A stretch of 64,000 bases of DNA from Methanosarcina vacuolata Z-761. Its GTDB lineage: Archaea > Halobacteriota > Methanosarcinia > Methanosarcinales > Methanosarcinaceae. Positions 1 through 3,719 of this stretch are shown here, piece by piece; positions within the stretch are counted from its first letter, which is position 1, and each line of letters starts with the position of its first letter. The stretch covers positions 2,480,001 to 2,544,000 of the forward strand of contig NZ_CP009520.1 of assembly GCF_000969905.1 (NCBI RefSeq), in the 5' to 3' direction. The notes under the pieces are model-generated. The model searched no databases. It was not told the DNA's origin and was given only the letters and a program-made list of their open reading frames with translations. A program made the position numbers and the translations under genes.

Positions 1-1
1 G

Positions 2-1006
2 CTGGACTTGAAGCCCTTGAAAAAGGAACTTATGGAGTTTACCCTGCTGGAGAAATCTTTCTCAAAACTTGACTCAGATGCTAAAAAACTTCTTCTTTAT
101 GCTTCTATTTACGGAGAAGCCGTTCCTGAAGAAGCATTATCGTGGATTATAGGAGACGAAAAAGACGAAAGCTCCTCTATCGTAGAGCCCCTGCAAAAAC
201 TAATCCAGTGGGGTTTGATCTCAAAAGAAAAATATGACCAGACTGTCTACATGGAACATACAATAGTCAGAAATTTCGCTCAAGATAAGCTGAAACAAGA
301 TAAGCTGAAACAAGAAGGACTGGACAAAAAGAAGCTTCTCATCAGGGCTGCCAAATATTACGAAAATCTGGTATCTCAAACTGGAAGTCTCTGGGATTAT
401 CTGAAAGCACGAGACTACTACTTCGAAGCAGAAGATTGGAAAAGGGCAAACGAAATTGTAGAAAATGTCTCAGACCTTATGATCTGCTGGGGACACATTG
501 AACTTGCAATGAACCTGTTAAATGATTCTATCAACACGACATCAGGAGATACGAGAACAAACGCTGAATATACCCTTGCGACGATTTACTACCGCCTCGG
601 AGACCTAAATACAACATTAAAAATATATAATAACATAAAATATAAATAGGAGGAAAGGGGGGATAATAGGGGGGTTGCAGTTGTACTTCATGCAATTGGA
701 ATGATTCATCAGGATCAGGGCAACTACGAAGAAGCAGTGAAAAAGTATAACCAGTCCCTGAAAATGAAAGAAGAGCTGGGAAACAAAAGCGGAATTGCAA
801 TAACATTAGGGCAGATGGGAAGGGTACTCGAAGAAAAAGGAGAGTATGAACTTGCCCTAAAGGATTACTATACTGCGCTTGAAATATTCGAAGAACTCAA
901 ATCTCCGAACAGGGAACTTGTTCGAAAATGGATTGCAGGATTAGAGGGAAAAAGAGAGAAGAGGAGTTTAAAAACCATAATTGGAAAAATTTGGGGTAAA
1001 AGATGA
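2..1006 (+). CDS. C-terminal part of a winged-helix/TPR (STAND-type) protein with an in-frame UAG codon
   Basis: The frame is open from the left edge, so the 5' end is missing. The first ~100 visible residues look like the winged-helix module that follows the NTPase of STAND/NB-ARC proteins (a hydrophobic LLLYASIYGEAVPEEALSWI stretch, then PLQKLIQWGLI). TPR repeats follow. At 647-649 a TAG interrupts the frame, but the same frame continues to TGA at 1004-1006 with more TPRs. The residue at the TAG lines up with a Lys in the next repeat (YNNIKYK-x-EERGD against YNQSLKMK-EELGN), so repeat spacing is exactly kept. The product may be read through with pyrrolysine, or truncated. The stop overlaps the start of the next gene (ATGA). 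STAND-TPR proteins are scaffolds or sensors in signalling and defence; the NTPase part is not seen here. Confidence 0.75.
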
Positions 1007-1212
1007 CTATTGAACTTATTAAATGCCCTCATTGCGGGTACAAATATAAGACTGATGTAGAAAAAGTTGTTAAAGATGGAGAAACAGTTGTAGTGCTCGT
1101 GGGGTTTTCTGATACAAAGGATAAACTCAGGAGAAAAACTGCTAAAAGCTTATTTATAGATCTCACTTGCCCCAATTGCAAGAAAGAATTTGAATATGAA
1201 GTGAAAACATGA
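1003..1212 (+). CDS. small zinc-ribbon protein
   Basis: A 69-residue protein with two Cys pairs, CPHC near residue 8 and CPNC near residue 57. This is a classic zinc-ribbon layout with a central beta-rich stretch (TVVVLVGFSD). The start ATG overlaps the stop of the upstream TPR gene (ATGA), and its own stop overlaps the start of the next gene in the same way, so the three genes are almost certainly one transcript with coupled translation. Function unknown; it could bind nucleic acid or serve as a structural metal module for the TPR or membrane partner. Confidence 0.7.
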   Translation: MTIELIKCPHCGYKYKTDVEKVVKDGETVVVLVGFSDTKDKLRRKTAKSLFIDLTCPNCKKEFEYEVKT

Positions 1213-1682
1213 ATAGTGAGGATTCCGGAGGAAAAGGTGCTGAAGAGGAAGCTCCTGTAAGGGAAGCGGAACCGAACCCTTTCTGGAAGCAGAATGCCGA
1301 AAAACTTGTTGGGGAATCCATTTCCAGCGTGGAAGACACTGCAAAACAGTTTGTTATCATTACAGGGCTGCTAGAAGGGATTTATTTCCATGCCATAACG
1401 TTTTCGGATGTAAAGAGCATGGAAGGAGTTTCAGTCCTGATATACGCGGCTCCGCTTATTTTGTGGCTCATAAGCCTTATTTTTGCGGTGATGGTGCTGG
1501 TCAGGAAAAAATATGGTATAAACATAAATTCAAGCCGGGATTCTAAGGAAAAATTTGAGAAGATCCTGGAAGGGAAATCTCAGCTTATACGGATATCCGG
1601 TTTGTTTTTGATCCTCAGCTTTGTGGCACTTACTATTGTTCTCCTGGATTACCTGGGGATTATTTCGTACCACACATTTTGA
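1209..1682 (+). CDS. uncharacterised membrane protein, last gene of a TPR/zinc-ribbon operon
   Basis: 157 residues. The first ~45 are acidic and probably cytoplasmic. A weakly hydrophobic segment follows at about 50-65, then clear membrane helices around 75-98 (VSVLIYAAPLILWLISLIFA) and 130-152. A basic, polar loop (KKYGININSSRDSKEKF) lies between the last two. The start ATG overlaps the stop of the zinc-ribbon gene. No family is recognised. The operon context suggests that it anchors or senses for the STAND-TPR protein, which is inference only. Confidence 0.65.
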   Translation: MNSEDSGGKGAEEEAPVREAEPNPFWKQNAEKLVGESISSVEDTAKQFVIITGLLEGIYFHAITFSDVKSMEGVSVLIYAAPLILWLISLIFAVMVLVRKKYGININSSRDSKEKFEKILEGKSQLIRISGLFLILSFVALTIVLLDYLGIISYHTF

Positions 1683-2876: not shown

Positions 2877-3719
2877 TTATTTTTCGTACAGGATTTTTTC
2901 TACTGTGGCCACAAAATTTTCAAAGTTCTTCTGCCATTCCGTGTCATGTTCAAGCATTTCCAGGATAACTGTGCCTTTATCTTCCATTTCTGCGACTTTT
3001 GGCTCTATAGGAAGTCTGACAAGGATAGGGATGTTGAAATCTTTTGAAGCTTTTTCCACTCCTCCATTCCTGAACACTTCTATCGGCTTGCCGCAGTGAG
3101 GACAGACCAAACCATGCATGTTGTCGACAATGCCTATAACAGGAACATTGAGTTTTTTAGAAAATCCGATCGATTTACGGACGCTGACGAGAGCTACGTC
3201 CTGAGGAGTTGTTACAAGTATTGAACCGTCAATATTGGGGATCAACTGGGCCAGGCTCAAGGGTTCATCACCTGTGCCCGGAGGCAGATCTATAATCAGA
3301 AAGTCAAGTTCTCCCCATACGACGTCTTCCAGTAACTTTTCGATAATCCCCATTTTTAATGGTCCTCTCCATATGATGGGAGAGTCTTTATCTTCGAGTA
3401 GAAAGCCTATAGACATCAACGAAAGATTGGGAAGGACCTCAACTGGCATTATGCCTTCTTCGCTAACTTCTGGCTTCATAGATTCCATGCCGAAAATCGT
3501 GGGAATGGTCGGGCCGTGAATATCGCAATCCAGAAGTCCCACTCTATATCCATGCAGAGCCAGTCCGATAGCCAGGTTTGCTGCAACTGTGCTTTTCCCA
3601 ACTCCGCCTTTTCCACTCATAATCAGGATTTTACGCTTGATGCGTCTGAGGTTGACTATCATTTGGGGTTCAGTGGACTTTTTTGATAAGCTTACCAGTG
3701 GTTGAACCGGATCTGTCAT
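2877..3719 (-). CDS. Mrp/NBP35-type ATP-binding iron-sulfur carrier protein
   Basis: 280 residues, the usual size for an archaeal Mrp (ApbC/Nbp35) protein. A deviant Walker A, GKGGVGKST, is at residues 36-44. It is followed by the DCDIHGPTIPTIFGM block, an LIIDLPPGTGDE Walker-B-like motif near residue 140, and a CPHC pair near residue 205 that would carry a bridging [4Fe-4S] cluster between two subunits. The family binds Fe-S clusters and hands them to apo-proteins, needing ATP. It acts in the cytoplasm. The gene is monocistronic, reading toward the 15-bp repeat array, with a 22-bp repeat block upstream of its start. Nothing is missing from the motifs. Confidence 0.93.
   Translation of the reverse strand: MTDPVQPLVSLSKKSTEPQMIVNLRRIKRKILIMSGKGGVGKSTVAANLAIGLALHGYRVGLLDCDIHGPTIPTIFGMESMKPEVSEEGIMPVEVLPNLSLMSIGFLLEDKDSPIIWRGPLKMGIIEKLLEDVVWGELDFLIIDLPPGTGDEPLSLAQLIPNIDGSILVTTPQDVALVSVRKSIGFSKKLNVPVIGIVDNMHGLVCPHCGKPIEVFRNGGVEKASKDFNIPILVRLPIEPKVAEMEDKGTVILEMLEHDTEWQKNFENFVATVEKILYEK

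What the first reader, a model, noticed from the sequence alone, without database searches (positions are those of the whole stretch)
2..1006. TPR protein gene continues through an in-frame UAG at the position of a Lys in the repeat
The same frame runs on for 119 codons after the TAG at 647-649. The TPR spacing is kept to the residue, with the stop lining up with a Lys in the next repeat. Methanosarcina decodes UAG as pyrrolysine, so this may be a pyrrolysine-containing STAND-TPR protein rather than two genes. An AAG-to-TAG mutation is the alternative. A GGAGG sequence just after the TAG leads to no start codon in this frame.
Basis: partly seen in the sequence, partly recalled or inferred. Interest (0 to 1): 0.6.

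Follow-up and report, generated by a model that had tools for sequence, protein, structure and literature searches.

The report
Tyr-to-amber mutation in CHAT-NACHT-TPR gene
A defence-type receptor gene in a Methanosarcina species has recently acquired an in-frame UAG where relatives have tyrosine; as this organism can read UAG as pyrrolysine, some full-length protein may still be made, but nothing suggests that the change was selected.

Summary
The frame at window 2-1006 is one gene interrupted by TAG (647-649). It starts about 1.85 kb upstream of the window and encodes a CHAT-NACHT/NB-ARC-TPR protein: about 834 aa to the TAG, about 953 aa if read through. Homologues align straight across the TAG without indels. 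The detail behind the pyrrolysine reading is wrong: the Lys is only the residue at the same place in the next TPR of the same protein. In 14 homologous genes of the genus the residue is Tyr (10), Cys (2) or Phe (2), never Lys and never TAG. The simplest event is a private Tyr codon to TAG change. The genome has a pylTSBCD cluster and two amber-containing mtmB genes, and UAG is ambiguous in Methanosarcina (20-30% readthrough of an introduced amber in M. acetivorans, PMC2933860), so a minority of Pyl-containing full-length protein is plausible if the gene is expressed. Nothing indicates selection for it: no PYLIS match, no RNA structure, no conservation of the amber. The syntenic orthologue carries an unrelated TAA, two other copies are frameshifted or deleted, and an intact paralogue exists in the same genome. 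Most likely a recent nonsense mutation of the neutral, Thg1-like kind, or the start of decay.

The parts
2..646 (+). 3' part of the main frame of a CHAT-NACHT/NB-ARC-TPR gene; the 5' part lies upstream of the window (likely GTG start at G000:C2:2478148)
   Evidence: Pfam CHAT 1.4e-32, NACHT 2e-8, NB-ARC 1.5e-7, TPR_12 2.3e-17
647..649 (+). in-frame TAG (codon 835 of the 953-residue readthrough frame) where homologues have Tyr, Cys or Phe
650..1006 (+). continuation of the same frame: end of the first TPR, two further TPR units and the C-terminal cap, 118 codons plus TGA
   Evidence: coding potential
1003..1212 (+). 69-aa zinc-ribbon protein, ATGA overlap with the end of the readthrough frame; second gene of a conserved three-gene module
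1209..1682 (+). 157-aa hydrophobic (probably membrane) protein, ATGA overlap with the previous gene; third gene of the module
   Evidence: membrane nature read from the sequence only

Best explanation
A single recent base change turned a Tyr codon (TAT or TAC) into TAG in the first TPR of a CHAT-NACHT/NB-ARC-TPR gene of one Methanosarcina species. Because UAG is read ambiguously in this genus, ribosomes are expected mostly to stop there, giving a protein of about 834 aa that keeps CHAT, NTPase and part of the alpha-solenoid. A minority should insert pyrrolysine and make the full protein of about 953 aa. The change looks neutral or slightly harmful and tolerated (as described for Thg1 of M. acetivorans), not an adopted use of pyrrolysine. 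Shown: one interrupted gene, Tyr-type ancestor, amber private to this genome, pyl machinery present. Inferred: expression, the proportion of readthrough, tolerance of Pyl at this site, neutrality.
For: Codons aligned to the TAG in 14 homologous genes: TAT x9, TAC x1, TGT x2, TTT x2; none is TAG or a Lys codon. No indel flanks the site; the frame runs on to an ATGA overlap with the next gene, a joint kept in most homologues. tRNA-Pyl(CTA), pylS, pylB, pylC and pylD are clustered within C2:4298001-4312000, and both mtmB genes carry one in-frame TAG, a positive control. PMC2933860 reports 20-30% full-length product from an amber introduced into uidA in M. [quoted passage not shown] PMC3639795 describes such cases as neutral. 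The gene is otherwise intact: CHAT His/Cys motifs and Walker A/B are kept, and dN/dS over 825 upstream codons against the nearest orthologue is 0.12, within the 0.08-0.17 of the other pairs, so the lesion is young.
Against: No expression, ribosome-profiling or proteomic data. The site is Tyr, Cys or Phe in every homologue, so bulky Pyl may not be tolerated. Downstream dN/dS of 0.29 against the nearest orthologue is above the upstream value, but pairs without an amber span 0.12-0.69 there, so it does not discriminate between readthrough and loss.
Confidence: 0.62

Rival explanations
1. Plain pseudogene in the making: the TAG simply truncates the protein, any Pyl readthrough is irrelevant, and the function is covered by the paralogue.
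For: An intact paralogue of 1083 codons at C2:1568216. Other family members are broken by non-amber lesions: the syntenic orthologue in G030 has TAA at codon 22, the G003 copy is split between frames near residue 400, the G002 copy has a large deletion and frameshifts. The copy has fewer TPR units than its relatives.
Against: No second lesion in 953 codons; dN/dS is still low; UAG is known to be partly read as Pyl in the genus.
Confidence: 0.29
2. Adopted pyrrolysine switch: UAG readthrough, tied to methylamine growth, sets the ratio of short to long receptor, and is under selection.
For: The amber lies inside the TPR array, which by analogy with antiviral STAND proteins (PMC10907252) could be the sensor; the frame downstream is preserved; the long form ends in an overlap with the next gene of the module.
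Against: The amber is absent from all 14 homologues; no Rfam PYLIS match; no unusual fold downstream (z -0.33); the event is one base change.
Confidence: 0.04
3. Sequencing or assembly error (true codon TAT).
For: One base, in a context of A-runs and G-runs; in the G002 assembly the G-runs just downstream differ in length.
Against: The genome is assembled into two contigs, a chromosome and a plasmid-sized one, and rated 99.99% complete; the difference is a substitution outside the homopolymers; no indels nearby.
Confidence: 0.04
4. Two separate genes, the second starting at ATG 701.
For: An ORF of 101 aa from ATG 701 exists.
Against: Homologues are continuous across the site, TPR_12 spans it, and a second gene would start in the middle of a TPR.
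Confidence: 0.01

Closest known systems
Thg1 (tRNA-His guanylyltransferase) of Methanosarcina acetivorans with an acquired in-frame amber
   Same: Amber private to one species in an otherwise ordinary gene; ambiguous UAG decoding in a pyl-bearing Methanosarcina; neutral origin proposed (PMC2933860, PMC3639795)
   Different: Pyl was physically observed in Thg1; nothing is known of the product here
Methylamine methyltransferases MtmB, MtbB, MttB
   Same: In-frame TAG in the same genome (two mtmB)
   Different: There the amber is conserved in nearly all members and Pyl acts in catalysis; here it is private and replaces Tyr
CHAT-NACHT/NB-ARC-TPR STAND proteins (antiviral STAND / NLR-like architecture)
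   Same: N-terminal protease-like CHAT, central STAND NTPase, C-terminal TPR array of variable length
   Different: No antiviral function tested; PADLOC gives only generic TPR and SAVED_CHAT matches
HetF-like CHAT proteins
   Same: CHAT region scores to NCBIfam CellDiv_HetF, 3.5e-20
   Different: 71.9 bits against a cut-off of 1200: only the CHAT part is shared

Membership tests
Pyrrolysine-containing proteins | pyl machinery in the genome | tested here: met
   tRNA-Pyl, PylS at 409.6 bits, pylB, pylC and pylD ORFs read from the cluster
Pyrrolysine-containing proteins | in-frame UAG inside a homologous domain with coding sequence on both sides | tested here: met
Pyrrolysine-containing proteins | amber conserved in more than one species (criterion of PMC1914089 for removing pseudogenes and errors) | tested here: not met
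   0 of 14 homologues have TAG
Pyrrolysine-containing proteins | Pyl detected in the protein | not testable with these tools
   needs mass spectrometry
Pyrrolysine-containing proteins | PYLIS-like structure downstream (not obligatory) | tested here: not met
   no Rfam PYLIS match, fold z-score -0.33
CHAT-STAND-TPR receptors | CHAT domain with His and Cys motifs | tested here: met
   Pfam CHAT 113.7 bits; HFTGH and LSSCESA kept
CHAT-STAND-TPR receptors | NACHT/NB-ARC NTPase with Walker A and B | tested here: met
   GFGGMGKT and LIILDNFED
CHAT-STAND-TPR receptors | C-terminal TPR array | tested here: met
   TPR_12; complete only if the TAG is read through
Antiviral STAND defence systems | protection against viruses | not testable with these tools
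   only generic PADLOC matches
Pseudogene | additional lesions or relaxed constraint | tested here: inconclusive
   no second lesion; upstream dN/dS 0.12; downstream 0.29, within the range of pairs without an amber

The most novel reading that the evidence does not exclude
Pyrrolysine supply sets the length of a CHAT-NACHT-TPR immune-type receptor, linking methylamine metabolism to a defence or cell-death switch in this species.
Probability: 0.03. Interest if true: 0.75.

Novelty: new member of a known kind. Interest (0 to 1): 0.24.

Why it matters
It adds one clean case to the small set of species-specific ambers in Methanosarcina outside the methyltransferases, with a known ancestral residue type (Tyr), a syntenic orthologue and an intact paralogue. 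That makes it a usable test of how ambiguous UAG decoding cushions nonsense mutations. It does not show a new function for pyrrolysine.

Tried and rejected
AAG-to-TAG origin: rejected, since homologues carry Tyr, Cys or Phe and the Lys codon of the next repeat is AAA. Two genes: rejected. PYLIS or downstream structure: none. Downstream relaxation by dN/dS: not informative, because the TPR array varies in all pairs. Excess of amber-interrupted genes in the genome: in a sample of about 0.87 Mb (557 gene ends; the window gene is counted twice there), gene ends were TAG 15, TAA 310, TGA 232; amber ends with a coding-like extension were 2 of 14 against 17 of 542 for TAA and TGA, Fisher p 0.08, and many of the latter are probably neighbouring genes in one frame, so only suggestive. 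Two papers on UAG decoding and termination in these archaea were not held, so reviews were used. Structure prediction was not run: the tool returns no coordinates from which burial of the Tyr could be judged.

Full report
Observation. The frame from window base 2 stops at TAG 647-649 and runs on for 118 sense codons to TGA 1004-1006. The window cuts the gene: in the genome it begins about 1.85 kb upstream, with a likely GTG start at L009:8148 = G000:C2:2478148. Read with the TAG as a residue, the frame from L009:8145 gives 953 residues with the TAG as residue 835; from the GTG start it is one residue less. Pfam finds CHAT (112-343), NACHT/NB-ARC (about 413-579) and TPRs (from about 806 to 920). 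A TPR_12 match runs across the stop.

What the homologues say. The search of 31 genomes of the genus found close homologues in several and one paralogue in the same genome at C2:1568216. More came from named assemblies, among them M. spelaei and Methanosarcina MAGs. In codon alignments nothing is inserted or lost around the site. Counting each gene once, the codon opposite the TAG is TAT in nine genes, TAC in one (the degraded G002/L059 copy), TGT in two and TTT in two. No homologue has Lys there and none has TAG. One transversion from TAT or TAC explains the TAG.

Machinery. The genome has tRNA-Pyl with anticodon CTA, PylS, and ORFs recognisable as PylB, PylC and PylD in one cluster. Both mtmB genes show one TAG inside, as expected for real Pyl genes, whereas three mtaB genes, which need no Pyl, have none. 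TAG is rare as a gene end: 15 of 557 in the sampled 0.87 Mb. Reviews state that UAG is both sense and stop in these archaea, that an amber introduced into uidA in M. acetivorans gave 20-30% full-length product with Pyl, and that Thg1 of that species acquired an amber that is read as Pyl without being needed for activity (PMC2933860). PMC9499178 describes competition between Pyl-tRNA and the release factor without an obligatory signal, and PMC3639795 discusses neutral gain of ambers.

Selection or decay. The body of the gene is intact: CHAT His and Cys motifs, Walker A and Walker B are kept. dN/dS against the syntenic orthologue in G030 is 0.12 over 825 codons upstream of the TAG and 0.29 over 83 codons downstream; pairs without an amber range from 0.12 to 0.69 downstream. 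So the lesion is recent, and the downstream stretch cannot tell readthrough from loss. The family loses copies: the syntenic orthologue in G030 has TAA in place of Tyr at codon 22, the G003 copy is split between frames near residue 400, and the G002 copy has lost its middle and is frameshifted (G-run lengths in that assembly may partly be errors). No PYLIS match or unusual structure lies downstream.

Context. The gene is the first of a conserved three-gene module: the CHAT-NACHT-TPR gene, a 69-residue zinc-ribbon gene and a hydrophobic protein of about 157 residues. The first two genes overlap or abut in most homologues, here by ATGA. Termination at the TAG would therefore leave about 350 bases untranslated ahead of a probably coupled start; this is an inference. 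By architecture the protein resembles STAND receptors, whose TPRs can act as sensors (PMC10907252), but no function was tested.

Mechanism proposed. Most ribosomes stop at the UAG and make a protein of about 834 residues that lacks the end of the first TPR, two TPR units and the C-terminal cap. When Pyl-tRNA is abundant, a minority insert pyrrolysine and complete the protein. Steps shown here: the interrupted gene, the ancestral residue type, the machinery. Steps inferred: expression, readthrough level, tolerance of Pyl at a site that is otherwise Tyr, Cys or Phe, and neutrality.

Verdict. It is most likely an ordinary recent nonsense mutation in an organism where UAG is leaky.

Noticed in passing
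window 1-1682 and L043, L044, L045, L046, L047, L048, L049, L050, L051, L055, L057, L059: Conserved three-gene module in Methanosarcina: CHAT-NACHT/NB-ARC-TPR protein, 69-aa zinc ribbon, about 157-aa hydrophobic protein, mostly with overlapping or abutting joints. In G002 the two small genes persist although the large gene is broken. No specific defence-family match.
   Followed up: partly
L044:3065-3067 (G030): The syntenic orthologue has TAA in place of a Tyr codon at residue 22, with strong constraint on the rest of the gene.
   Followed up: partly
homologues L043-L057: The number of TPR units after the first repeat varies strongly between copies (open frames of 893 to 1538 codons), as if repeats were gained and lost often.
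   Followed up: no
L089:14818-15816 (G000:C2:2104818-2105816): A permease-like (AzlC-like by eye) frame meets TAG inside a tail coding for tandem ETEKTQ-type repeats and stays open 78 codons further; a second amber-interrupted frame in the sample.
   Followed up: partly
window about 2640-2820: Tandem array of a 15-base unit (TGATTGATTTTAATG-like) between the gene at 2214-2540 and the Mrp-type ATPase gene at 2877-3719.
   Followed up: no
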